From: a virus
Strand: one strand, 5' to 3'
IMG/VR virus record: IMGVR_UViG_3300026484_000295
Location: 62,001-126,000 of that record
DNA: 64,000 bases
The notes below the pieces were generated by a model, which was given only the letters and a program-made list of their open reading frames with translations, made no database searches and was not told where the DNA came from. The translations under genes were made by a program, and so were the position numbers. Below, in pieces: positions 1 to 42,600 of the stretch; the stretch's first letter is position 1, and each line of letters begins with the position of its first letter.

Positions 1-3000
1 GAAATATCATCTGCAAAATCTTCTATATCTTCAGATACATGTATTCCATTAATAAAGAATGATGTCCCATTATCATTAAATTCTGGATGATATACACCTT
101 GATTTCTTCTATTTACAATAGCAACCGGAATTGCATATACGTAATTATTATGAGATAAATTCGTTGGCTCTTCTACGGTAAATAGAGCATCATCAAATAA
201 TTTTCCTTCTTTATACAATAATGAATTTGGATTACTTGCTTGAATTAATGTTCCACCAGCAAATATTTGTAAGGTTTCAGTAATTGGTTGTCCAGTTGCA
301 TCTTCTCCAACTTCTTGTGTAACAATTCTACTAGTAACTGGAGATTTCCCTTGGAATCTTAATCCTTCAGACATATATGGTGATGTCCCTTTAAAAAAGT
401 TATTAAATAAGTTCAACCCAACAATTCTAGTTCTATATCTTATTTGTACTAATTTATCACCGTCAAAATAAAGGTTATGGTCTGCATTATGAAAAATAGT
501 TTTTCTTTCTTCATCACTTAATTCGGATAATTTCCATCCTCTACCAATAGTATTATCTTCAACAAATGTTTCATCAATAAGTTTCTTTTCTTTATCTGTA
601 ACAGAATCAAATGCAGTTCCATCATAATAGTTATACACAATATTACTTTTTTGAAATGATTGACAATATTGTTTCGCTCCATCTGGAATTGCTGCTGTCT
701 CACCATTAACAGTATCATAAAATATATGATCAAAAATAACAGTATCAATATTATCAGATGTAGACCCTTGATATTGTACATTTCCAAATGGGAATATAAA
801 ATCTGTTTCATCAACGGCTTCATGCCAAACTTCAATAAATACCAAATCTTTTCTTTCTAGTACAACAATATCAATAAGATCGAATTCATCATTACGTCTA
901 ATAGTAACTTCTTGACCAATTTCCTCAAGCATAGTTAAAGTTAAGTCCTGACCCTCTTGAATATAATCTAGTCCTTCAATCCAATTAATTTCTTCATATA
1001 TAACTTCAAATGGGATTTCAGCCCCATCATCTTCTTCAATATTAAAATCGATAGCAAATGTAATTTGTCCACCTTCAGAAATAACACGTTTAGATGTAAA
1101 CTCTTCAGCACCAGTAGATAATAATCTTACAACAACTTGGTCTCTATCTTTGGTATCTAATATAGTAAATGTTTTACCAAATCGGTAATAACCTACTTTT
1201 GGTACTGTTATATCTTCCCATGTATTTTGTAGTTCTGTCTCAACACCATTAATATTACGTGTTATAAAGAATCCTTCATCATTTTCTTCAACCATAAAAG
1301 TTCTAGTATATTTGTAATAATAAACAATATTTCCATCTTCATCTAATAATGGATTTCCATCTTCACCATACTTTACAAGTTTTAAAACAAACTGATCTAA
1401 ATCTGATGATAATATATCAATAACTTTTTGTTTTTCTGACGGTGTTAAAATCATCGTATTGGTCATATTATTAATGTATTCTTCATTTAGATCATTAACC
1501 ATATCATCAACCATAATTTCTTTAGCTTTTTGTAAGTAAGAAACAACTTTTACATCATCTAAATTTAAAATATTATTTCCATCATTATCAACAATAAAGT
1601 ATTCTAATGATACATTGTCCGATAGTGATAATTGTTCTGCATTTTTAGCCCACTCAATATCAAAATTACTAAACCAATTACCTGTTAAATCAGAATCAAT
1701 TTCTAAATATTGTCTTAATAACTCTTTTTGCAAATCATCCGATTCTCGTAATAAGCTTCGTTTTAATATAGGATTTCCTAATGAATCAACTTTAGTTTGT
1801 CCAATAAATTTATAAAATTTTAAATTTTCTTTATCAAAGACTACATCACCATTTTTAAGTACTTTACCTTCGGGTAAAGTTTCACCCATAATCCATGTAT
1901 ATTCATGTCCTTCAATAACTTGTGGTACAACAATATCAAATTTATTTTTATTAATATCAAATGGCACAGTTACCTTTGGTTGTGGTTCTTTAGTAATAAA
2001 ATCTATTTTGAGTTCTGCCTGTGGAGCTTGTATTCTTTTTAATACCATTATATCTGTCATTGTACCATATAAAAGAGTAAGAATATTTTTAGATAAGAAA
2101 TACCCTTCACCATAAATCATTGCTGGATCTTCATTTACTGCTACCGTTTGTAAACCAGTTAAACGCAATGTAAAATCATTTGCTCTATTTCCAGTATATT
2201 CTCCAAAATAAGTAATTTTTTCTAATGTAAGAATATATGATTCTAATGATGTATTATTATCTATAAAGAAATTTTGATCGTCTAAAATAAATAAATTTTC
2301 GCCATCTTGAGCTGCTATTTTTTCAATAGTATAAGGGTCTTTTTTAACAACTGTTAATTCGCCAGAAATACTATCTTGCTCCCAAACATGTCTAATAATA
2401 GTAAATCTAATAACATCATTCTTATCAGCATTAAAGATTTTATAATTTTGACCTTTTCTTTCATACTCTAATTCTTGAACTGTTACATCTTCCCAAAATA
2501 CTCCACCTTCTACAACTGCTATAGTTTTATTATCAACTGGCATAGCTTCATATGAAAGAGCAGAACCCAAATATTGAAAATATTTATCATCTTTTTTAAC
2601 AATATCATTATAATCTAATTGTTCACCAGGTAATAATTCCTGTCCATCTGTCCAATTAAAACTATTTCCAGTTAATGGTTCTGGCATAACAATTATACCA
2701 TTATCATTAGCCCAATGGCCATCAATATCATTTGTTGGTGTTCCAGTTTTTTCTAATCGTAAAATAATATCTTTTTTTCCAACACGCTTAATATATAATG
2801 TATCACCTTTATTAATTTCTTCATTAAATTCTAAAGGTTTATCTAAACTCAATAATCCATCTATCTCATAATCACTATAAATTGAAAGTGATTGTCCATT
2901 TCTAGTCAATTCAATATTACCTTGAATAATATTAAAATCAACAGGAATAACTAAGTTTAATACATCTTCTAATACCTCTTCAGTTTCAAATACAGGCATT

Positions 3001-4973
3001 ATATCATTATAAGAAATTGTTATAGGTGTTTCGACGCCATCTTCGGAAATTGTTACCATTTTAAGATTATCTTCAGAATCTACATAAACATAAACTTTTG
3101 TACTATCAGATTTTTTCTCAAAAACTCTATAACCGTTAACGTCAGTTAATTGAATTTCTTGTTTTGATTCATCTAAAATATATGTTCTTAATGATTCATT
3201 ATCAATATAAAATGTAAGATTATTAGCAACATAAATCATAATATCTGAATGCTTATACGTATCAGAATTATCTAATGTACCTTCAAAAATTTCTTGGACA
3301 TCATTCGATGGTGTATATAAGTTACCTCTACTATCAAGAAAGTAAATATCCCCATCTGATTTTTTATAATATTTTGTACCAACTTCATGATAATAATAAA
3401 ATACTTTACCGGCACTATGAGTATATAATTCACTATTAAGTGTAGTTATTAAAATATTTTCCGTAGTGATTTTAACAGCTCTATTAGCATTAACATCATT
3501 ACTAGTATAATTGCCATCAGCATCTAAAGTACTAACAATATTACCACCATTACCAACCATTAAAGTATCTACTCTATAATAATTAATTTCAGTTGTATCA
3601 ATAGTATGTATATCTTTAACATCATAATCATCTAAATTATCTTGAACTGTTATAGTTGTAGCAATATTACCATCAGTATCAGTTATATCTGCCACATCAA
3701 CATATTTTACATAAGATTTATCGACTACTATTTTAGATGCTCCAGCTGTTGCAGGAATATAATTTCCATCTGCATCTTTTCGTAATGTACCATCTTCATA
3801 TAACCAAACAAAATCTCCTGATGCATACGTTTCATCATTAAGTTGTTTTGAATAAGGATAATAAAAATATTTTTTTCCTGTATTTAAATACATTCTTATA
3901 TTTTTATCTTCTATATATTCATTTCCATGATTGTCAGTTTGAACTTCAAATCCTTGTTCAGATACAATTACTTTATTAAGAATATCAGTATCAAGACCAT
4001 TTATTGTTTGTGTAGTAATATTATATGTTACTAGCATAGGTTGCGTTATTTCAGATTCAACCAATACACCATTTTCTTCAACAAATCTAGTAACTGTCAT
4101 AGTATCCAAAAATACATCGGAGTCATTATGTTGTAATCTTACCTCTGTAGCATCATTAGATACCGATGGCACTATATCAAAAATTCTTGAGGTATCAGGA
4201 TCAATATATTGCGCTACAGCTTCAGAATTATAAATTCTTTCAAATTGAAAAGTATTACCAAAATCTATTGAATATCGAGTATATGGTTCTACTAAAGGAT
4301 CTGCATCCGGATCGGTTTCAATATATGATGTTCCATCATCTCTTAAATAGAAAACATTACTATCTTCATCCATATAATAATATTTTAGAACATCACCGTT
4401 AATCATTTGATCTATATCAATCTTATATTCATCAGTTATTCTATTAGTTACTGTAATAGTTATTGCAGAATCAGTTATTACTTTTTCATTAATAATAGTT
4501 TTTTTAGGTTGGAAATTTAATACCATATCGTTATCTTCTGGAAAGAAAACTGGAAGGTTTGGAGCAATAGGAAGTTGCATCATTTTTGATATATCTTGAC
4601 CAATATCACCTTTAGTATAATTAATATTATAACCTGCTACATTAATACCTCTTTTTTGACCATCAATGGTTTGTGGTTCAAATGGCGATTCATTCTCATC
4701 TAAATTTGAAATCCATACACCTGTATCTGCCTGTTCACCATTTCTAAATGGTACGAAATTTCTATTGATTTCAATAAACCCAGATTTCTCTAAGTTACGT
4801 TTATTAACTTCAATATCCCTTTCAATATGCGTTGTTTCTGGTAATCCAAATACAACATCTATTTCAGCAATTTTTGCTTCTAAATAATCCGAAAATGCTG
4901 CTGATACATTATTGAGATCGTTATCAATTTTCTCAAATACTTCACTATGAAGTTGATCTAATCTAATACCCAT
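1..4973 (-). CDS. Giant fibre/baseplate-type structural protein (C-terminus beyond window)
   Basis: Open frame from the ATG at 4971-4973 to the window edge, at least 1657 residues without a stop. The start follows AGGAG seven bases upstream. The N-terminus (MGIRLDQLHSEVFEKID) matches the start of the protein at 6509-9793. A later block also matches that protein: LVFIEVWHEAVDETDFIFPF, then FGNVQYQG, GRGW, then FDGDKLVQIRYR. The two are therefore paralogues. The composition (Asp, Asn, Thr, Tyr; many short beta-type repeats; little coiled coil) suits a phage fibre or a protein of the baseplate periphery. A TATAAATA late promoter lies at 5147-5154, leaving a leader of about 165 bases. I recognise no enzymatic motif. 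The structural role is inferred from paralogy, late control and size. Confidence 0.75.
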   Translation of the reverse strand, partial: MGIRLDQLHSEVFEKIDNDLNNVSAAFSDYLEAKIAEIDVVFGLPETTHIERDIEVNKRNLEKSGFIEINRNFVPFRNGEQADTGVWISNLDENESPFEPQTIDGQKRGINVAGYNINYTKGDIGQDISKMMQLPIAPNLPVFFPEDNDMVLNFQPKKTIINEKVITDSAITITVTNRITDEYKIDIDQMINGDVLKYYYMDEDSNVFYLRDDGTSYIETDPDADPLVEPYTRYSIDFGNTFQFERIYNSEAVAQYIDPDTSRIFDIVPSVSNDATEVRLQHNDSDVFLDTMTVTRFVEENGVLVESEITQPMLVTYNITTQTINGLDTDILNKVIVSEQGFEVQTDNHGNEYIEDKNIRMYLNTGKKYFYYPYSKQLNDETYASGDFVWLYEDGTLRKDADGNYIPATAGASKIVVDKSYVKYVDVADITDTDGNIATTITVQDNLDDYDVKDIHTIDTTEINYYRVDTLMVGNGGNIVSTLDADGNYTSNDVNANRAVKITTENILITTLNSELYTHSAGKVFYYYHEVGTKYYKKSDGDIYFLDSRGNLYTPSNDVQEIFEGTLDNSDTYKHSDIMIYVANNLTFYIDNESLRTYILDESKQEIQLTDVNGYRVFEKKSDSTKVYVYVDSEDNLKMVTISEDGVETPITISYNDIMPVFETEEVLEDVLNLVIPVDFNIIQGNIELTRNGQSLSIYSDYEIDGLLSLDKPLEFNEEINKGDTLYIKRVGKKDIILRLEKTGTPTNDIDGHWANDNGIIVMPEPLTGNSFNWTDGQELLPGEQLDYNDIVKKDDKYFQYLGSALSYEAMPVDNKTIAVVEGGVFWEDVTVQELEYERKGQNYKIFNADKNDVIRFTIIRHVWEQDSISGELTVVKKDPYTIEKIAAQDGENLFILDDQNFFIDNNTSLESYILTLEKITYFGEYTGNRANDFTLRLTGLQTVAVNEDPAMIYGEGYFLSKNILTLLYGTMTDIMVLKRIQAPQAELKIDFITKEPQPKVTVPFDINKNKFDIVVPQVIEGHEYTWIMGETLPEGKVLKNGDVVFDKENLKFYKFIGQTKVDSLGNPILKRSLLRESDDLQKELLRQYLEIDSDLTGNWFSNFDIEWAKNAEQLSLSDNVSLEYFIVDNDGNNILNLDDVKVVSYLQKAKEIMVDDMVNDLNEEYINNMTNTMILTPSEKQKVIDILSSDLDQFVLKLVKYGEDGNPLLDEDGNIVYYYKYTRTFMVEENDEGFFITRNINGVETELQNTWEDITVPKVGYYRFGKTFTILDTKDRDQVVVRLLSTGAEEFTSKRVISEGGQITFAIDFNIEEDDGAEIPFEVIYEEINWIEGLDYIQEGQDLTLTMLEEIGQEVTIRRNDEFDLIDIVVLERKDLVFIEVWHEAVDETDFIFPFGNVQYQGSTSDNIDTVIFDHIFYDTVNGETAAIPDGAKQYCQSFQKSNIVYNYYDGTAFDSVTDKEKKLIDETFVEDNTIGRGWKLSELSDEERKTIFHNADHNLYFDGDKLVQIRYRTRIVGLNLFNNFFKGTSPYMSEGLRFQGKSPVTSRIVTQEVGEDATGQPITETLQIFAGGTLIQASNPNSLLYKEGKLFDDALFTVEEPTNLSHNNYVYAIPVAIVNRRNQGVYHPEFNDNGTSFFINGIHVSEDIEDFADDI

Positions 4974-9894: not shown

Positions 9895-11616
9895 TTAATA
9901 TTTTTTTAAAATGCGTTTCCCACTATCTGTATAAATTAAAAATCCATTCATCAACATATTTTCTTTGATAGTTAGATTATTATCATATAATTCTATATAA
10001 GCCATTACATTAGTATGATCTAAACTATTACATGGAATAAATATATCCTTTTTATTATAATACAATGATTCCGAGATTGACCCTTCAAAACTAAAGTTAA
10101 TCTTAAAAAATAAATCTAAATATAAATTAAATCTCCTATCAATAGATACTATTATAGATTTATCAATCAATGATAAAATATCTATAAATGGATTAGTATT
10201 AAAATCTATTTCTGGATATATTGCAAATTGTTTAATTTCTATATTTTTTTTATGATTTGAAATCCCCATTACAGCTAGGAGTTCATTATTAAAAAATGCA
10301 CCATACATTTTTGTAAATGGTAAACTGATATTATATAAATGTTCATTTAAAAAATTAAAGCCCGTTGTTGTATCAATCATTTTAATTTCGAGTTCATCAA
10401 CATCCATTTTTTTTATTTTGTATTTTAATTTATAAAGTATAATTTGCTTGCAATACTCTTCATAATATGACCATTCGTATTCATAAAATTGTATTAAGTT
10501 TATATCTAAATTATCAGCATTTAAACTATTATCAATATAAGATGTATCTTTAGAAGTTGATGGCGATAAAATCTCTATAATAATATTTGTTTTTAAAATT
10601 TCTACTTTATCCAATTCTACTATCTTAAAATTATATCCTATCAAACCTAAAAAGCACTGGATTTTATTTAAAATATTTTTTCTATTATCTAGTATAGGAT
10701 TACATTGAGCACAAATAGGCAAATTATTAATATCAATTACGCTTTTAATTATACTATTACATGTCTTACATTTAAAAGTGTAAATATATTCGCTATCATA
10801 TATTTGCAAATCATCAATAAGAGTAACAAATATATTATCTTTAAATTTTTCAAAAATTTTATTATTAGTAGCGTTATCAATTTTTGATATAGATATAGGG
10901 TTTTTTTGTGCAGAATAACTGTCATATTTTGAAATAATTGTATTTTTACGTTTTTCTAAAATAGTTTTATTCTTTATAGGAAATATAGTTCCAAATTTTT
11001 TTAAATTTGTATCGTATGCTTTTTTTCTAATATAATCTAATGATAAAGGGTTGGGTACACCATACTTCATTAAATTAGTGGTTATTGTTTTATTTCTAAT
11101 TTCCTGAGATTGTTGAGCGTATTCCACACCATATTTCTCTATCATTGTTTTTTTTATTTTTTCTTTTGTACTATCCAATTTTGCAATAGAATCTACACCA
11201 TATTTTTCTTTAACTGTTTTTTTTATTTTTTCTTTTGTACTATCCAATTTTGCAATAGAATCTACACCATATTTTTCTTTAACCGATAATTTCAATTTCT
11301 TTTTTTGTTTATCATTTTGTAAAGGGTGTTCTGCCCCATAATTTTTAAGAAAGGTTATTTTTTGATTGTGTTCTTTTGAACAGCCTAAATTAAATATATT
11401 AGTACGTTCATTAAATGAGGCATACTTCGAACAATTTTTAAATTGGCATTTTGGAGGAGCATCCATATCCCTTATCAATAAATACCATTGGGCTTTTATA
11501 GATAAAGTCGGGTATCTCTTATTTAGATACCCAATAAGTTCTTTTGAAAAGTTTTTAAAATAAATATTTTTTTTAGTCTTATAATATTCAATTTCTGCTT
11601 TTAATTTAATTTCCAT
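9895..11616 (-). CDS. Vsr-like phage homing endonuclease family protein with KYG repeats, probably nuclease-degenerate
   Basis: 573 residues. The N-terminal zinc-finger-like segment has Cys57, Cys62 and Cys79. About seven 23-residue helical repeats of the KEKYGVDSIA..STKEKIKKT type (roughly 92-245) are the DNA-binding repeats typical of large phage homing endonucleases. A second Cys4 ribbon (CKTC...CAQC) follows, then the Vsr-like region ending in the family hallmark LIQFYEYEW, then a C-terminal GNAT-like half (YGAFFNNELLAVMG). The usual catalytic stretch (Asp, then IE-N-G-x-Y-W-H) reads IIIEILSPSTSKD, so the active site looks lost. The start overlaps the end of the topoisomerase gene with no good ribosome site, suggesting coupling. 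In known fractured genes, such endonucleases accompany split inteins. Confidence 0.7.
   Translation of the reverse strand: MEIKLKAEIEYYKTKKNIYFKNFSKELIGYLNKRYPTLSIKAQWYLLIRDMDAPPKCQFKNCSKYASFNERTNIFNLGCSKEHNQKITFLKNYGAEHPLQNDKQKKKLKLSVKEKYGVDSIAKLDSTKEKIKKTVKEKYGVDSIAKLDSTKEKIKKTMIEKYGVEYAQQSQEIRNKTITTNLMKYGVPNPLSLDYIRKKAYDTNLKKFGTIFPIKNKTILEKRKNTIISKYDSYSAQKNPISISKIDNATNNKIFEKFKDNIFVTLIDDLQIYDSEYIYTFKCKTCNSIIKSVIDINNLPICAQCNPILDNRKNILNKIQCFLGLIGYNFKIVELDKVEILKTNIIIEILSPSTSKDTSYIDNSLNADNLDINLIQFYEYEWSYYEEYCKQIILYKLKYKIKKMDVDELEIKMIDTTTGFNFLNEHLYNISLPFTKMYGAFFNNELLAVMGISNHKKNIEIKQFAIYPEIDFNTNPFIDILSLIDKSIIVSIDRRFNLYLDLFFKINFSFEGSISESLYYNKKDIFIPCNSLDHTNVMAYIELYDNNLTIKENMLMNGFLIYTDSGKRILKKY
11161..11298 (-). 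repeat. Two 69-bp direct repeats in the endonuclease gene
   Basis: Two near-identical 69-bp units (11161-11229 and 11230-11298) encode identical 23-residue KYGV repeats. The DNA-level identity points to recent unequal duplication. Confidence 0.8.
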
Positions 11617-11622
11617 AACATA

Positions 11623-12855
11623 TTATTTTGTAGCCAACCATTCTTTTCTGATTGAGGCATTATCATCAAAAAAGATTTGCATTAATTCATCTAAATGACC
11701 TTGATCGGTAATATTAAAGGCGTATTCCTCTAAATTTGAAAATACGTACTCCCAATCCGGTTTTTGCATAGAACCCAACCCTTTAAAGTAATCTATTTTC
11801 CACGAATCATCAACTGTACCAGATTCTTTAGCTTCATCAAATTCCTGTCTATTTGAATAATACAATACTTTTTTACCTTTTTTTGCAGCAATCATAGGAA
11901 ATACAATTCTATTGATAAATGGATTTTCATGATCCCAAAACAATTCTGGGAAATATTCATGAAATAAATTAACAACAAGATTATTAATGGCACTTCCGTC
12001 TGGGTCAGCATCAGTAGCTATATAAATTTTTGAATATTTTAATTTTGTATCAAAAGCAGGTCGCAACCATTTATGAAATCTATCTAATTTAGCATCAGAA
12101 TTAGCTTTTTTAATCTCTATATTTTGTGTTGATTTTGGTATTTTTTTAAGTAGCATGGATACCCTATGCCATTTTTTATCAAAATATACTTCATCAATAT
12201 CATTACAGATTAATGTTGTTCTACCTATTTTAACTTCATATTTAACACCATTTTTTCTAAATCCTCTAAATTCCCATTTTCTTCTAAAATGAAAGTAATC
12301 TGGATCTGAAAGATCAGAAATTGTAGCATCACTCGCTTCTATTTTTTGAATGTAGCCACGATATAATTTTTCATTATCTACTAATTCATCAACACTAACC
12401 CATTTTTTATTTAAGTGAAATTTATCTTCTGAGCTAACAATTACTGTTTTAATTATAGGCTCACCTTCCTTATCAACTTCAAAAATACTTTCAAATGTCA
12501 CCTCATATATGCGTGCATTATCACTAATCACCCAATCACCCATTTGTTCGTTAAACTCTAAATTTATTGCTGTAATTATATCAGCTACTTCATCATTATT
12601 CATTGCATCTATTGGTGCCTTACCATAGACATTTAAAACTTTACCTTTTAATGGCATTCCAGCTTGTGTTTCTGGATCTCTAATTTCAGTAAACGAAGCT
12701 ATTGCAGAATTATGTGTCAATAATCCATTTTCAAGAATAAATGTTTCATTATCTTCTACTTGTATATCATTCATATTAATGACTTTATTAGTACTATAAA
12801 CACTATTAATTTCTACCATATCAAATTCATCAATATTTATTTCATTCAATTGCAT
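11623..12855 (-). CDS. C-intein plus C-terminal half of T4-type DNA topoisomerase II large subunit (gp39/gp60-like)
   Basis: Residues 1-49 look like the C-terminal part of an intein, ending DNETFILENGLLTHN, with Ser50 as the +1 residue. From Ser50 the protein reads SAIASFTEIRDPETQAGMPL, then KGKVLNV: the TOPRIM start of T4 gp39 (EG.SA motif), split just before the Ser. The catalytic-metal motif DADPDG is at 282-287. The tail (YFKGLGSMQKPDW, DNASIRKEWL) aligns with T4 gp60. The ATPase half and the EG of the motif are absent, so activity requires trans-splicing to a partner outside this window. Between about 105 and 255 lies an unusual insertion of some 150 residues. The start is well supported by ATAAGGAG. 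No late promoter is seen. Confidence 0.88.
   Translation of the reverse strand: MQLNEINIDEFDMVEINSVYSTNKVINMNDIQVEDNETFILENGLLTHNSAIASFTEIRDPETQAGMPLKGKVLNVYGKAPIDAMNNDEVADIITAINLEFNEQMGDWVISDNARIYEVTFESIFEVDKEGEPIIKTVIVSSEDKFHLNKKWVSVDELVDNEKLYRGYIQKIEASDATISDLSDPDYFHFRRKWEFRGFRKNGVKYEVKIGRTTLICNDIDEVYFDKKWHRVSMLLKKIPKSTQNIEIKKANSDAKLDRFHKWLRPAFDTKLKYSKIYIATDADPDGSAINNLVVNLFHEYFPELFWDHENPFINRIVFPMIAAKKGKKVLYYSNRQEFDEAKESGTVDDSWKIDYFKGLGSMQKPDWEYVFSNLEEYAFNITDQGHLDELMQIFFDDNASIRKEWLATK
12709..12855 (-). other. Split-intein C-terminal fragment (49 codons)
   Basis: Block F-like MNDIQVEDNETF and block G-like LLTHN|S are present. The fragment starts with its own Met behind a strong ribosome site, as split C-inteins do. 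Splicing would leave Ser50 as the first C-extein residue. The N-intein partner is not in the window. Confidence 0.8.
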
Positions 12856-12957
12856 TTAATCTCCTTATGTTATGTTTATTTTACATTTTTTTATGCCACA
12901 ATCTAAAACTTCTATCAATATCACTCTTATTAATTTAATAGTAATGAAATTATATTA

Positions 12958-13218
12958 TTATTTGGGTAGTTCACCAACCAAATATTTTTTTATTAATTCA
13001 TCAGGGTAGTCTTCTTTAAACTACTTATATAACGATTCAAATTTATTATATTGTCTGAAATTAGTGTTTGATATGCAATTGTAGTTTTTATAAGGTTCTA
13101 TGTTAGTTTCAATTTTATATTGGTGTTCAAACTAACCAAATGATGGTATAAGTGAAACGTAATAAATGTCTTCTCTTATACCAAAATAATATTTTAAGAT
13201 GTCGATTGTTTTAAGGTT
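12958..13218 (-). pseudogene. Decayed reading frame with two in-frame amber codons
   Basis: One frame reads as protein-like sequence for about 87 codons (…LKYYFGIREDIYYVSLIPSFG, later FKEDYPDELIKKYLVGELPK) and ends with TAA at 12958-12960. It is broken by TAG at 13132-13134 and 13021-13023. No start codon with a ribosome site is seen. This fills the 367-base gap between clpP and the topoisomerase gene. It could be a remnant of a gene cut when the split-intein cassette entered. The family is not recognised. Confidence 0.6.
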
Positions 13219-13222
13219 CTTA

Positions 13223-15388: not shown

Positions 15389-15619
15389 CTATTCTTGAAT
15401 TAATAGATGATCAATTTGAATTTTTAAATCTTCCATCTTTTTCATAGTTAATTCTTTAGTTTTAGAATCCCATATACCCCATAAATGCGAGGGTGATGAT
15501 TTGACTATCCGATCTGATGTTTTAAAAATATATTTGTAAACTCTTTCTTCCGGTTTAAATTCTATGTCTAAAATTGGTAAAGTTTTAAAAATTCTACCAT
15601 CATCTAATCTAGCAATCAT
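15389..15619 (-). CDS. 76-aa protein resembling a Hint/intein block-B segment
   Basis: Residues 25-73 read RVYKYIFKTSDRIVKSSPSH, then LWGIWDSKTKELTMKKMEDL, then an Asp-His-Leu-Leu end. This follows the order of an intein N-half after block A: a V-Y-x-Y beta strand, then I-x-x-S/T-x-x-H (block B), then a strand with W and an x-x-x-L helix turn. The nucleophilic block A (Cys1) is missing, so it cannot splice alone. It may be a Hint-fold relic, a third intein piece or a convergent small beta protein. Start and end are embedded in the coupled operon (ATGA with the previous gene). Confidence 0.6.
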   Translation of the reverse strand: MIARLDDGRIFKTLPILDIEFKPEERVYKYIFKTSDRIVKSSPSHLWGIWDSKTKELTMKKMEDLKIQIDHLLIQE

Positions 15620-19510: not shown

Positions 19511-21907
19511 TCACCCACTACAACTTATGCATTCCTCTTTTTCTGAAACATCAGATGAATTTTTTTGGACACTCCTAATATAATATACAGTTTTCATGTT
19601 ACGTTCCCATGCATACATCAATGTTTCATACATATATTTTGCATTTACTTCTGGTAAATTTAAATTAAATATCAATTCCATCGATATACCCGTATCTGTC
19701 CATTTTTGTATTATAGAAATTATACGCACTACATCTTTTTGGGGGATATTTTTAAATTCTTGATAGAACCACATTTTATCTTTGATAAATGGTGGCATTA
19801 TTGGTACTGCACCTTTAGAATTTTTATCAACATAAAATTTACTAAAAATTGGCAATACCGATGCCGAACACCCTTGCACTAACGATGAACTTGTATTTGG
19901 AGCTATCATATGTAGATGTGAATTTCTAATACCATATTTCTCAAGTCTATCAAAGGTTTTCATCCATCTATCTGGATTATCCGTATTTTCTTTATACCAT
20001 TGTCTATCTCTACCTAAAATTAATCCTTTAGACCACTCTGAGCCATCATATTTTGGATATTTTCCTCTTTCTTTAGCTAAATCAATCGATGCATTAATAG
20101 TATAGTAAGCTATATTCTCAAATAATTTATCAACAACTTCATCAGATTTAGTATATGCGATATTACGTTTAGCTAAATAATCAGCTAATCCCATAGAACC
20201 AACACCAATAGTTCTATATATGTTATTATGGATTTCTCCTTCTTTAATAGGAACATCAGTAAAATCTATAGCATTATCCAATAATCTTACCGCTGTTTCA
20301 CAAGCACTATGTAAATCGGCTTCATCTTCTATGTTGGCAAGATTAATACTATTCAAATTACAAGTATGTACTAGCCCTGCTTCAGTTTCTCTTATAATTT
20401 TAAATTTACCATTTTCTTCTTCAATTTTATTCTCGATCACCTTAGATGGTCTAAAATTTGAATATGATTCTTGACATAAATTACCATTACCAATCATACC
20501 ATCATGCTTATTTGGATTAGCTCTATTCATAGCATCTTTAAAAGTTAAATAAGGCATACCCGTTTCAACTTGAGTTTTCATTATAGTTTTAAATAATTCT
20601 CTTGCTTTTGTACGTCTAACTAATTTTAATACTTTATATTCATCCTCTCTTCCAGAAATTAATCCGCTATACGTAGCATCAAACTCCTCATCATATAATT
20701 CAGTTAAATCAATATCAGCCTCTTGACCAATTTTTAAAATCATCTTTTCGATTTTTCTATAAACTTTTTCAAATGTTTCACCCCAAGATTCTGCTAAATC
20801 AACATTAAGTTTTTTCTTAATTTCATAAGGATCAACCATAAACCAGTCTTGGTTCTTTTTATTTCTACGCATAAATTCATCAGGAATAACAACCTGTGGA
20901 AATATATCAAATGCCTTTGTTCGTTGATCACCATTTTCCGTTTGAAGTTCTAAAAAATCCTCAATATCCATATGCCATATATCTAATGCAACAGTACAAG
21001 CTCCAGCTCTTTTCCCTTGTTGATTAACAGCTACAACAGTATCATTAACATTTCTAATCCAGGGTACCACACCACCAGAGGCATTTGGCATTTGTCCAAT
21101 CCATGAACCTTTACAACGAATTCTAGAAACGTTTAAACCAACTCCTCCACCATTCTTAGATATTTCAGCAATTTGATCAATAACATAATAAATACTATCT
21201 CTTGAATCATCCATTGCTGCAATAAAACAACTCGATAAATTACCAAATGGTTTTCTTAAATTCATAAGCATAGGTGTGGCTAGAGATAATTTTCGTTGTG
21301 CCAATTTTTCATAAGTATCTTTAATTCTATCCAACCTTAATTCTTTTGGTTGATTTTTTTCAATTAATAATGCAGCAGTTAAAAATGCCTCTTGAGGTAA
21401 TTCCCACGGTTTAGATCCACGTGTTAATAAATATCTGTTTATCATTAAATTTGCACCAGCATAATCAAATGACATATCATAATTAACATTAAGAAATTTA
21501 CCAATAGTTTTAATCTCCGATTCATCATAATAATCTAATATCGATGATTCATACAAATTCTCTTTTATAGACTGTTTAATATGTTTTAAATAACTATCAT
21601 AACCAAATGTCTCATAACCTTTTTCAAATTTTACATCTTTATATAGATCCATAAGTTTTAGTCTTGCCGCTAAAATTCTCCAATCCGGTTCATCAATGGA
21701 AGTTAGTTGCAATGCAGTATCAATCAAATTTTCCTGTATTTCTTTAGTCGTCATGTTATTACGAAATCTCATATGAATATTTGATTCTAGTTCAATAGGA
21801 TTTACATTCAACCCATCAGCAGCCCATTCAATAACCTGTCTTATTTTTGTTATATCTAATGGGGTAATATCTCCGTTTCTCTTTACTATTTTATAATGTT
21901 TGGCCAT
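19511..21907 (-). CDS. nrdA: Class I ribonucleoside-diphosphate reductase, alpha subunit
   Basis: 798 residues. An ATP-cone-like N-terminus (KIVKRNGDITPLDITKIRQV). The catalytic radical residues are Asn476, Cys478 and Glu480 in GNLCQE. The redox pair is Cys227 (SSCF) and Cys516 (HTCNLNS). The C-terminal swinging pair is CISC at 793-796. All are intact, so it should reduce ribonucleoside diphosphates to deoxy forms together with an NrdB subunit, which is not in the window. Somewhat longer than T4 NrdA. The start follows AAAGGGA. A TATAAATA box at 21954-21961 and a TATTATA-like box nearby both could drive it. Confidence 0.96.
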   Translation of the reverse strand: MAKHYKIVKRNGDITPLDITKIRQVIEWAADGLNVNPIELESNIHMRFRNNMTTKEIQENLIDTALQLTSIDEPDWRILAARLKLMDLYKDVKFEKGYETFGYDSYLKHIKQSIKENLYESSILDYYDESEIKTIGKFLNVNYDMSFDYAGANLMINRYLLTRGSKPWELPQEAFLTAALLIEKNQPKELRLDRIKDTYEKLAQRKLSLATPMLMNLRKPFGNLSSCFIAAMDDSRDSIYYVIDQIAEISKNGGGVGLNVSRIRCKGSWIGQMPNASGGVVPWIRNVNDTVVAVNQQGKRAGACTVALDIWHMDIEDFLELQTENGDQRTKAFDIFPQVVIPDEFMRRNKKNQDWFMVDPYEIKKKLNVDLAESWGETFEKVYRKIEKMILKIGQEADIDLTELYDEEFDATYSGLISGREDEYKVLKLVRRTKARELFKTIMKTQVETGMPYLTFKDAMNRANPNKHDGMIGNGNLCQESYSNFRPSKVIENKIEEENGKFKIIRETEAGLVHTCNLNSINLANIEDEADLHSACETAVRLLDNAIDFTDVPIKEGEIHNNIYRTIGVGSMGLADYLAKRNIAYTKSDEVVDKLFENIAYYTINASIDLAKERGKYPKYDGSEWSKGLILGRDRQWYKENTDNPDRWMKTFDRLEKYGIRNSHLHMIAPNTSSSLVQGCSASVLPIFSKFYVDKNSKGAVPIMPPFIKDKMWFYQEFKNIPQKDVVRIISIIQKWTDTGISMELIFNLNLPEVNAKYMYETLMYAWERNMKTVYYIRSVQKNSSDVSEKEECISCSG

Positions 21908-39600: not shown

Positions 39601-42600
39601 GAATTATATCCTTACTAAAAACATGTATATCATATAATAATGAATCTCTAACTCTTGCATTATGCATATCTGAACCAGGTTGATTAGCTCTATAAAACTT
39701 TTGTGAAATTAAATCACTATATGGATCTATTGGTAGCATTCGCATAAACCCAAAATCTATACGTATAATACCTAATGCATCAATTAATAAAGAATCTACC
39801 ATATTAGCAATTCTATCTAAATCAGCAGAGTTATGATAAAATTCATCGTATGCAAATTCATTATGTCCTGGTATAAATGTTCCATTATCAGTTATAAATG
39901 ATTCTCTTTCTCGTCCTGCCCAAATATGTATTTCTGTATGTATTGTATCAATTGGCTTTATCTGAATATTTTCACTTTCCACCATATCTAATTTAGCAAT
40001 ATATTTATCTTTTAATGAAATATCATTCATATCTAATAACTCTGTTTCAAAACCTTGTTCTAATAGTGAATCATAAACCATAGCACTTATATCCTGTCCC
40101 AATATTGTAGGATTGCTTTGATGAAAATATTCGTCAATAGCAAATTCATCATGTCCTGGAATATCAAGTACATCATATAGAATACATATATCAGTCCAAA
40201 TAGAATCCAATACAGCAATATTTAATTGTTCATAAAATTCGTGTAAAATAGTTTGATGCATTAAATCTTTCATACCGATTAATGTTGTTTGATCTTCAGG
40301 TCCAGAATATTCATCTAAACCATATAAATCCATAGGTAATTGTTCCATATCATAAAATCGAATATTAAATTCTGTATCAATGTCAATCAAATAATCTTCT
40401 ATAATATTTGTTTCCGTAACATCATCAATATCATTCATAATATCAATAGTAGGTATATAATCTATAAAATGTGATTCAATAATATTATCTTGTTCAAAAA
40501 TATTTTGTTTGATATGAAAATAATCATCAATATAAGTATCAACTACTTTCTCAAATTCATTTTCAGGTATGCATTCCCACCATAAATTTGCTAAATTAGG
40601 TGGAGTATATATAGATTCAGGTCTCTGCTTCCAAATTTCTTTATTTAGTACATACCATTCATCATCTATACCATATGTTTCATCATCCATAACCATCAAA
40701 TCATGTCCACCAACTTTTACACTTCTATCATAATCATATGGTATTTCATCATGGGCGCCACACAGTTTTAATCCTTCAGATGGAAAAATTACACCAATTT
40801 TAGATGTTATTATAGAACGGTCTATTGTTTGTATTCTAATGTTTTCACTAAACGCAGAAATAATATCGATGATATTTCTATCTCCTACCACAATATCTGC
40901 TTCTTTAGAAACTGCTTCTGCTGATGAACTTTCCATAATCTTAATAGTAAATATAATTTTATCTAAAACAGTATGAAAAGGTAAAAATTCATCAAATAAA
41001 TCTTGGACTATTTTCTCATAAATATCATAAGTTGCATCACCTTTACTATCCTTTATATTAATAGCCATAGATAAATCTAACATTGAAGATGCAATTACAT
41101 CTTCTGTAAATAATGCTAGTATCTTAGTTATTAAATCATAACGTTTGATATTAAATAAATAGTCAAAATAATGTTCTACTGGCTGCTTAATATTGTCTAA
41201 ATACGTTAATTCTTCAAGATCAGTTATTTCAAGATTTATGAATGAATTATATACTAAGTTTGAATCGGTTATTACTTTATAAATTTCATCTACATTGTTA
41301 CCTAAATCCGCAAGGAGAGTATGTTCTTTTATTTTATTATATTCCACAGATAAATTTGGATGATCAAATTGCTTTAATTCAAAATATATCACTTTTTTAA
41401 ATTCTTCAACAGTCTTTACATCATTCATAAGAATATAATTTGGTAAAAATCTCTCAACAAACCATCGAATTATAACTAAATTAACGCTTAATATATCAAA
41501 TCCCTGTTCAATAGATAACCGATTTAATACATCTAATACCTCAAATAAGTAATCTACAGGTTTATTTAGTTCATATTTAATAATATCTTCATATTCATTA
41601 TAATTATCAGAAAAACTAACATATGAATTAGTAATCATACTATAATCTAATAATCTATAATCTTTTTTAGAAAAAACACCATCATCAATAATAGGACGGA
41701 TTAACAATAACGGTTCTTTCCAATCAACAGACATTTTAATAAATCCATTTATATCTAAAATATCATATTTGAATGGTTTTTCAAAATGCACATGATTATT
41801 ATCTTGAATATCATTCCAGTCTGAATAATTTATAATTGGTTTATACGTTTCAATAGTATCTTTTTTTATCTTTTCTAATTCATCCGTAAAAATATAAAAT
41901 AACCGTTCTTTATCATACTGATTAAATGTCATCATTGAAACTTCAGAAACAATTGCATTATCAGCATTTTCTTTTATAAAATCAACAATATCTTTTAAAT
42001 TATTCTCTATCCATACATTATGAATCAAATAATAATCGAATTGTTCTAGTAAAAAATCATCTTCAAGATATTTTCTTATATATTCTATCAATATATTATG
42101 TATATTATTCGTATCTAAAGAAAAATGCTCATAATTATTATTTTTAAAAATATCAATCAAATCATCATATGAACCAGAAATCAATTTCGTCTCCATTAAA
42201 TCAGCAACTAATTCTTTTAATGTATCAACAATATAGATTGAAGATGGTAATACAGTTGAAACTCTAGCCCATTCAGATATGAATTTATTACGTTGAACCA
42301 TATAAACCGATGAAACATTTATATCATTTGAAATGGCTTTTAAATTTGACTTTAAATATGATTCCAATCCTTTTAAAGACGAAGTATTCGTTTTAAACAT
42401 TAAATATGGTTCTTCTTCTAAATTTTGAGGTTTTGCATTATTAATATCTATATCTAATTGTTCACCCAATAAATTATGTTGTTGTGAATCATTAATTTTA
42501 TCCTGTCCTCTCCCTAACATATATACATTATCAGGAATCATCATAGATGAATAAATATTTTCTCTACCAAAAAATTGACTGTTAGAATTTTGAGGTAATA

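What the first reader, a model, noticed from the sequence alone, without database searches (positions are those of the whole stretch)
11623..12855. Split intein breaks the topoisomerase II large subunit at its EG.SA motif
Seen: the gene starts with its own Met behind ATAAGGAG, encodes 49 residues ending in intein-type DNETFILENGLLTHN, then continues SAIASFTEIRD, the point where T4 gp39 reads EG(L)SAIGYL. The ATPase half is missing. Known: split inteins start exactly this way and insert at conserved catalytic motifs; fractured phage genes with split inteins are known for other proteins (for example gp41-type helicase, NrdJ, IMPDH). Inference: a distant gene encodes the N-half ending in EG(D) plus an N-intein, and the enzyme is made by trans-splicing. 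T4 itself also splits this gene (39 and 60), but by a different route.
Basis: partly seen in the sequence, partly recalled or inferred. Interest (0 to 1): 0.8.

Follow-up and report, generated by a model that had tools for sequence, protein, structure and literature searches.

The report
Phage topoisomerase joined by split intein
In this uncultured giant-phage lineage an essential DNA-untangling enzyme is encoded as two separate half-genes, about 116,000 bases apart on opposite strands in the best relative, each ending or beginning with half of a self-removing protein splicer that is predicted to stitch the two proteins together exactly inside the enzyme's catalytic motif.

Summary
Window 11623-12855 (-) encodes a 49-residue C-intein (...NGLLTHN) fused to the Toprim half of a T4-type topoisomerase II large subunit (SAIASFTEIRD...). 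The window's own record is a 172-kb fragment with no N-half. A 95%-identical relative (G001, 290 kb) has the predicted missing piece: ATPase/transducer half, ending SEGD, then a 95-residue Cys-starting N-intein. It lies 116 kb away on the opposite strand, about 18.5 kb beyond where the window's record stops. No intact copy was found. A third lineage (C-half 65%, N-half 72% identical) repeats the pattern on separate contigs. The halves tile the family profile at position 445, and the in-silico product EGD|SAIAS aligns end to end with intact homologues. The joined intein matches the natural split intein gp41-1. Other phages are split at the same site with adjacent halves, with or without a nuclease-like gene between; most other topoisomerase loci lack the intein. 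It is a fractured gene with a natural split intein: a known kind, in a host gene for which I found no report, with dispersed halves. The lineage carries several other fractured genes. Splicing itself was not tested.

The parts
11623..12855 (-). C-half gene: C-intein fused to the Toprim half of topoisomerase II large subunit (410 aa)
12861..12866 (-). ribosome-binding site AAGGAG of the C-half, also present in G001
   Evidence: sequence
12709..12855 (-). C-intein, 49 aa, MQLNEINIDEFDMVEINSVYSTNKVINMNDIQVEDNETFILENGLLTHN, with penultimate His and terminal Asn
   Evidence: Pfam Intein_splicing 120-155/155, sub-threshold
12706..12708 (-). +1 residue Ser50, predicted splicing nucleophile and the Ser of the EGD-SA motif
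   Evidence: alignment of the joined product with intact homologues
11626..12708 (-). C-extein: Toprim catalytic half (SAIASFTEIRD ... DADPDG ... KGLGS)
12064..12543 (-). ~160-aa insertion between the two Toprim motifs; T4's gene 39/60 break lies in the same loop
   Evidence: AlphaFold models weak
9895..11616 (-). 573-aa putative homing endonuclease (DUF7487 / phrog_3339) 6 bases downstream of the C-half; a counterpart follows the C-half in both relatives

Best explanation
The large subunit of a T4-type topoisomerase II is a fractured gene reassembled by a naturally split, class 1 intein. One gene makes the GHKL ATPase/transducer half ending EGD plus a 95-aa N-intein (Cys1). A distant gene, the one in this window, makes a 49-aa C-intein (His48-Asn49) plus the Toprim half starting at Ser50. 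The intein halves associate, splice and ligate EGD to SAIAS, restoring the Toprim EGDSA catalytic motif in a covalent ~809-aa subunit. Shown: both halves, their boundaries, the conserved splicing residues, lack of an intact copy in G001, and the same fracture in other phage lineages. Inferred: that splicing occurs and yields active enzyme, and that the fracture began with a nuclease gene inserted in an intein (N - nuclease - C), which later moved or was lost while the halves dispersed.
For: N-half in G001, 543 aa: DNA_gyraseB 1.8e-20 and HATPase_c 1.3e-07, ending SEGD|CIDSNTKIHYEGG...LLRKKGL. A second N-half is 72% identical with the same boundary. The N-half matches phrog_543 20-445 and the C-half starts at 445: the halves tile the profile. 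The joined product aligns end to end with intact homologues through EGDSA. The joined intein matches gp41-1 natural split intein structures at 9e-4, and 3e-5 with a three-lineage profile. Splicing residues are invariant in all three lineages: Cys1, the block-B His, terminal His-Asn and +1 Ser. Protein-level constraint: dN/dS values 0.17/0.92 (C-extein outside the insertion), 0.34/0.65 (C-intein), 0.19/1.38 (N-extein), 0.39/0.96 (N-intein) between lineages. No intact copy in 290 kb of G001. The same-site fracture occurs in LR756500.1 and L192 (N - nuclease-like ORF - C) and L189 (N - C adjacent). Of the 77 further topoisomerase loci, none showed an intein by motif scan or by reading, most reading EG[L/D]SA; one (L141) is a contig end of the LR756500 type.
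Against: The N-half is not in the window's own 172-kb record, so the pairing rests on a relative of about 90-94% DNA identity. No experiment or transcript shows splicing. Intein similarity to curated models is below the curated cut-offs. A medium subunit (gp52/GyrA-like) was not found in G000-G004, so a working holoenzyme is not shown; the records may be incomplete.
Confidence: 0.9

Rival explanations
1. The two polypeptides assemble non-covalently, as T4 gp39 and gp60 or phage Aeh1 NrdA pieces do, and the intein halves are inactive remnants.
For: Split phage enzymes that work as separate chains are known (PMC2988022). T4 itself splits this subunit.
Against: All splicing residues are intact in three lineages. 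Intein parts remain under protein-level constraint. The break is inside the EGDSA catalytic motif, where T4's is not, so non-covalent assembly would leave intein tails in the active site.
Confidence: 0.06
2. The C-half is a pseudogene or assembly break of an ordinary cis intein-containing gene.
For: The own record is a fragment and lacks the N-half.
Against: The C-half has its own start codon and ribosome-binding site and is intact in four contigs. The upstream gene is a ClpP-like ORF (named by eye), not the N-half. In G001 both halves lie in one contig 116 kb apart on opposite strands.
Confidence: 0.01
3. Topoisomerase function is provided by the host or another enzyme and both halves are decaying.
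For: No medium subunit was found in the five records.
Against: dN well below dS on both halves and intact domains.
Confidence: 0.03

Closest known systems
Fractured genes with split inteins in phages (Dassa et al. 2009, NAR 37:2560; not held here, known from memory and from papers that cite it)
   Same: Conserved DNA-metabolism gene broken by a split intein, with a free-standing homing endonuclease nearby; LR756500.1 and L192 have the N - nuclease-like ORF - C order.
   Different: Topoisomerase II large subunit as host gene (no report found in the papers held); in this lineage the halves are unlinked (116 kb, opposite strands) and an endonuclease-family gene sits beside a half rather than between them.
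gp41-1 natural split intein (PDB 6QAZ, 6RIZ)
   Same: Best sequence match of the joined intein; similar overall size.
   Different: Inserted in a helicase (from memory); low sequence similarity (27 bits).
AceL NrdHF split intein (PMC7891396)
   Same: Fractured-gene organisation in a probable phage; 98 + 48 aa, nearly the same split as 95 + 49 here.
   Different: Class 3, in a ribonucleotide reductase subunit; the intein here begins with Cys1 (class 1).
Cyanobacterial split DnaE
   Same: Two halves encoded in different parts of the genome and joined by trans-splicing.
   Different: Bacterial, DNA polymerase III.
T4 genes 39 and 60 (split by mobA)
   Same: Same subunit broken in two next to a homing endonuclease gene.
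   Different: No intein; break lies between the two Toprim motifs; pieces are thought to assemble as separate chains (PMC2988022).
GyrB inteins (Ssp GyrB; Desulfonema mini-intein, PMC6390638)
   Same: Inteins in type II topoisomerase B subunits.
   Different: Bacterial, in cis; from memory the Ssp GyrB site is a few residues downstream (EGDSAGG^S) rather than EGD^S.

Membership tests
Naturally split (class 1) intein | N-intein starting with Cys/Ser directly after the N-extein | tested here: met
   SEGD|CIDSNTKIH, SEGD|CVKSDTLIH; in relatives, not in the window's own record
Naturally split (class 1) intein | Block-B His, terminal His-Asn and +1 Ser/Cys/Thr | tested here: met
   all three lineages
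Naturally split (class 1) intein | Intein sequence similarity to a characterised intein | tested here: met
   gp41-1, E 9e-4 single and 3e-5 profile; Pfam Intein_splicing only sub-threshold
[quoted passage not shown]
   G001; halves tile phrog_543 at 445; no genome of the lineage is known to be complete
Naturally split (class 1) intein | Trans-splicing activity | not testable with these tools
   needs expression
Fractured gene (Dassa type) | Free-standing endonuclease gene between the two halves | tested here: not met
   In the window lineage the endonuclease-family gene (DUF7487) lies after the C-half (and beside the N-half in G004), not between; the between arrangement is seen in LR756500.1 and L192 with an ORF of unknown-function phrogs
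T4-type topoisomerase II large subunit | GHKL ATPase + transducer + Toprim with EGxSA and DxD motifs | tested here: met
T4-type topoisomerase II large subunit | Works with a gp52-type medium subunit | tested here: inconclusive
   none found in G000-G004, records may be incomplete

The most novel reading that the evidence does not exclude
The EGD^S split intein shows, at one insertion site, three genomic states in different phages: halves around a nuclease-like gene (LR756500.1, L192), halves adjacent without it (L189), and halves scattered over more than 100 kb on opposite strands (this lineage). In the scattered lineage trans-splicing is used genome-wide: topoisomerase, DNA polymerase and terminase (three pieces) are all cut by split inteins, and in the relative also NrdA and UvsX.
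Probability: 0.6. Interest if true: 0.7.

Novelty: new member of a known kind. Interest (0 to 1): 0.6.

Why it matters
It adds a replication enzyme to the phage proteins that appear to exist only after trans-splicing, cut precisely in a catalytic motif. It shows that fractured genes in phages can become fully unlinked while both halves stay intact and under selection. The same site in several phage lineages gives a comparative series for how gene breaking by inteins and homing endonucleases proceeds. Practically, it offers new natural split inteins with Ser at +1 and short parts (95 + 49 aa), and a warning that phage annotation can miss such genes.

Tried and rejected
Lak phages, Atu_ph07, Vibrio 6E35-1b and XaC1 matched in tblastn, several of them from upstream of residue 50, which could have meant inteins; reading them showed uninterrupted EG[D/K/N]SA motifs. 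The ~160-aa Toprim insertion was suspected to be a second, dead intein because its strand pattern repeats twice. Pfam, PDB sequence search and Foldseek gave no intein match, and T4 gp39's C-tail (GEWFTFELNGDTIIVNENDEVQINGKWITVGEL) aligns with part of it, so it is more likely a T4-type Toprim insertion. AlphaFold models were low-confidence (mean pLDDT 50 and 58) and are not used as evidence. A G004 hit to a GyrA-like protein (E 0.001) was judged a chance match. Near-identity of the C-intein DNA between window and G001 (1 difference in 147) hinted at recent co-conversion, but neighbouring stretches are also 93-96% identical, so I do not claim it. A genome-contig scan found no relative. Dassa et al. 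2009 is not held, so I could not check whether topoisomerase is among the enzymes it lists.

Full report
What is in the window. ORF 11623-12855 (-) has its own ATG, an AAGGAG ribosome-binding site, and 410 codons. Residues 1-49 form a C-intein ending ...VEDNETFILENGLLTHN. Residues 50-410 are the Toprim half of a topoisomerase II large subunit (Pfam Toprim and TOPRIM_C; PHROG topoisomerase II large subunit 7e-47). There is no ATPase or transducer domain in the ORF.

Own genome. The window is positions 62001-126000 of a 172,404-bp viral record. PF00204, PF02518 and phrog_543 find no N-half there, only the C-half. The record is classed 'linear', so absence is weak evidence.

Relatives. Scans of IMG/VR gave three C-half relatives (95%, 65%, 65% over residues 1-410), in contigs called here G001 (289,880 bp), G002 (306,333 bp) and G003 (140,755 bp). 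The G002 and G003 C-halves are identical proteins, so these are two lineages, not three. In G001 phrog_543 finds the C-half on the - strand at 59.2-60.5 kb and a separate N-half on the + strand at 176,790-178,421, with no other copy. The gap is about 116 kb. The N-half is 543 aa: HATPase_c and DNA_gyraseB domains, then ...ATIAFSEGD|CIDSNTKIHYEGGIKPIKDILVGEKVLTHDG...LLRKKGL, a 95-aa N-intein. A second N-half, 72% identical, lies on a 121,946-bp contig (G004) from the same metagenome as G002 (IMG/VR ids 3300035665_000004 and _000001). That G002 and G004 are one genome is an inference.

Why the own record lacks the N-half. Stretch-by-stretch BLAST shows G000 collinear with G001, mostly at 89-94% identity, with G000's end (172,404) matching G001 158,243. 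The N-half starts about 18.5 kb further on.

The halves fit. The N-half covers phrog_543 20-445 and the C-half begins at 445. Joined in silico at EGD|SAIASFTEIRD, the product is 809 aa and aligns along its length with intact large subunits of Atu_ph07, XaC1 and Vibrio phages, and with T4 gp39 + gp60. Splicing residues Cys1, block-B His, terminal His-Asn and +1 Ser are invariant across three lineages. The joined intein's best PDB matches are the gp41-1 natural split intein structures (profile 3e-5). dN is well below dS in both exteins and, less strongly, in both intein halves.

The same site elsewhere. LR756500.1, a 462-kb uncultured phage record without annotation, has an N-half (L023:1009-2799...GIFEGL|CLEENTF), a nuclease-like ORF (2842-3963; it matches only phrogs of unknown function, so its nuclease nature is inferred) and a C-half (3953-4687...NGIISHN|SALSAVRKFRD) next to each other. 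L191/L192 repeat N - ORF - C, and L189/L190 have N and C adjacent with no gene between. Among the 77 further IMG/VR topoisomerase loci returned, a motif scan classed 67 as intact; reading the other ten showed an uninterrupted motif or a contig that begins after it, and one of the latter (L141) is the LR756500-type C-half cut off at a contig end. The loci added beyond those were not all read one by one. The intein-bearing site is thus rare and occurs in at least two well-separated groups. Whether that is one ancestral insertion or several was not tested with a tree.

Neighbouring endonucleases. A DUF7487/phrog_3339 homing-endonuclease-family ORF lies 6 bases downstream of the C-half (9895-11616), with an ORF of similar size in the same place in G001 and G002 and a DUF7487 ORF next to the N-half in G004 on the opposite strand (L031:8106-9161). 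Papers that cite Dassa et al. describe the N - endonuclease - C fractured organisation (PMC7891396; PMC6892783). I infer that the present arrangement derives from such a state; the order of steps is not shown.

Toprim insertion. The C-half has about 160 residues between the two Toprim motifs, absent from the intact homologues aligned. T4's gp39 tail and gp60 head fall in the same loop and the gp39 tail aligns with part of it, so T4's gene break and this insertion share a location. Structure predictions were too weak to classify it.

Other fractured genes. Split-intein junctions also occur in DNA polymerase B in the window's own record (G000 20156-20959 and 41177-42331), in terminase large subunit in three pieces in G001 (275194-275802, 279385-280170, 196327-197640), in a primase/helicase-like C-piece in G001, and in G002 in NrdA (three adjacent pieces), UvsX and terminase. 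These were read by motif and family match, not paired exhaustively.

Literature. Searches for split intein with topoisomerase, gp39, gyrB, jumbo/huge phages and fractured genes returned no report of a split-intein phage topoisomerase. The library is open-access only and the founding paper is not held, so 'not reported' is limited to that.

Verdict. Natural split intein in a fractured, dispersed topoisomerase II large subunit: sequence evidence very strong, splicing untested.

Noticed in passing
G000 20156-20959 (+) and 41177-42331 (+), outside the window; L038, L042: DNA polymerase B of the window's own record is also broken by a split intein (ISDTD|SVTKDATIE N-intein; ...NNILVHN|SCYFRIMEAENL C-half), 20 kb apart; same in G001 and G004.
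   Followed up: partly
G001 275194-275802 (+), 279385-280170 (+), 196327-197640 (-): Terminase large subunit appears to be in three pieces joined by two split inteins with short N-inteins (~33 and ~41 aa), reminiscent of atypically split TerL inteins.
   Followed up: partly
L011:9-3004 (G002): NrdA is in three adjacent pieces with two split-intein junctions in G002/G003; the corresponding nrdA ORF in G001 (L010:711-3107) is a single 798-aa ORF.
   Followed up: partly
G002 241522-242856 and 243946-244614; L052: UvsX-like recombinase is cut by two split inteins, one at the Walker A GKS.
   Followed up: no
L040:40-3207 (G003) and G002 63460-66627: Portal protein gene carries two cis inteins, the second with an HNH endonuclease.
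   Followed up: no
window 15389-15619 (-): 76-aa ORF with intein block-B-like sequence (IVKSSPSHLWGIWDSKTKELTMKKMEDL), conserved in the relatives; possibly a free-standing Hint-like fragment.
   Followed up: no
L023:4696-7418 and L192:7529-9130: The topoisomerase medium subunit is also fractured: N-piece with N-intein, DUF7487-like ORF, C-piece (C-piece seen in LR756500.1).
   Followed up: partly
window 12870-13222: Region upstream of the C-half aligns poorly with G001, where a 182-aa ORF (L010:9383-9931) occupies it; in the window that ORF is not listed intact.
   Followed up: no
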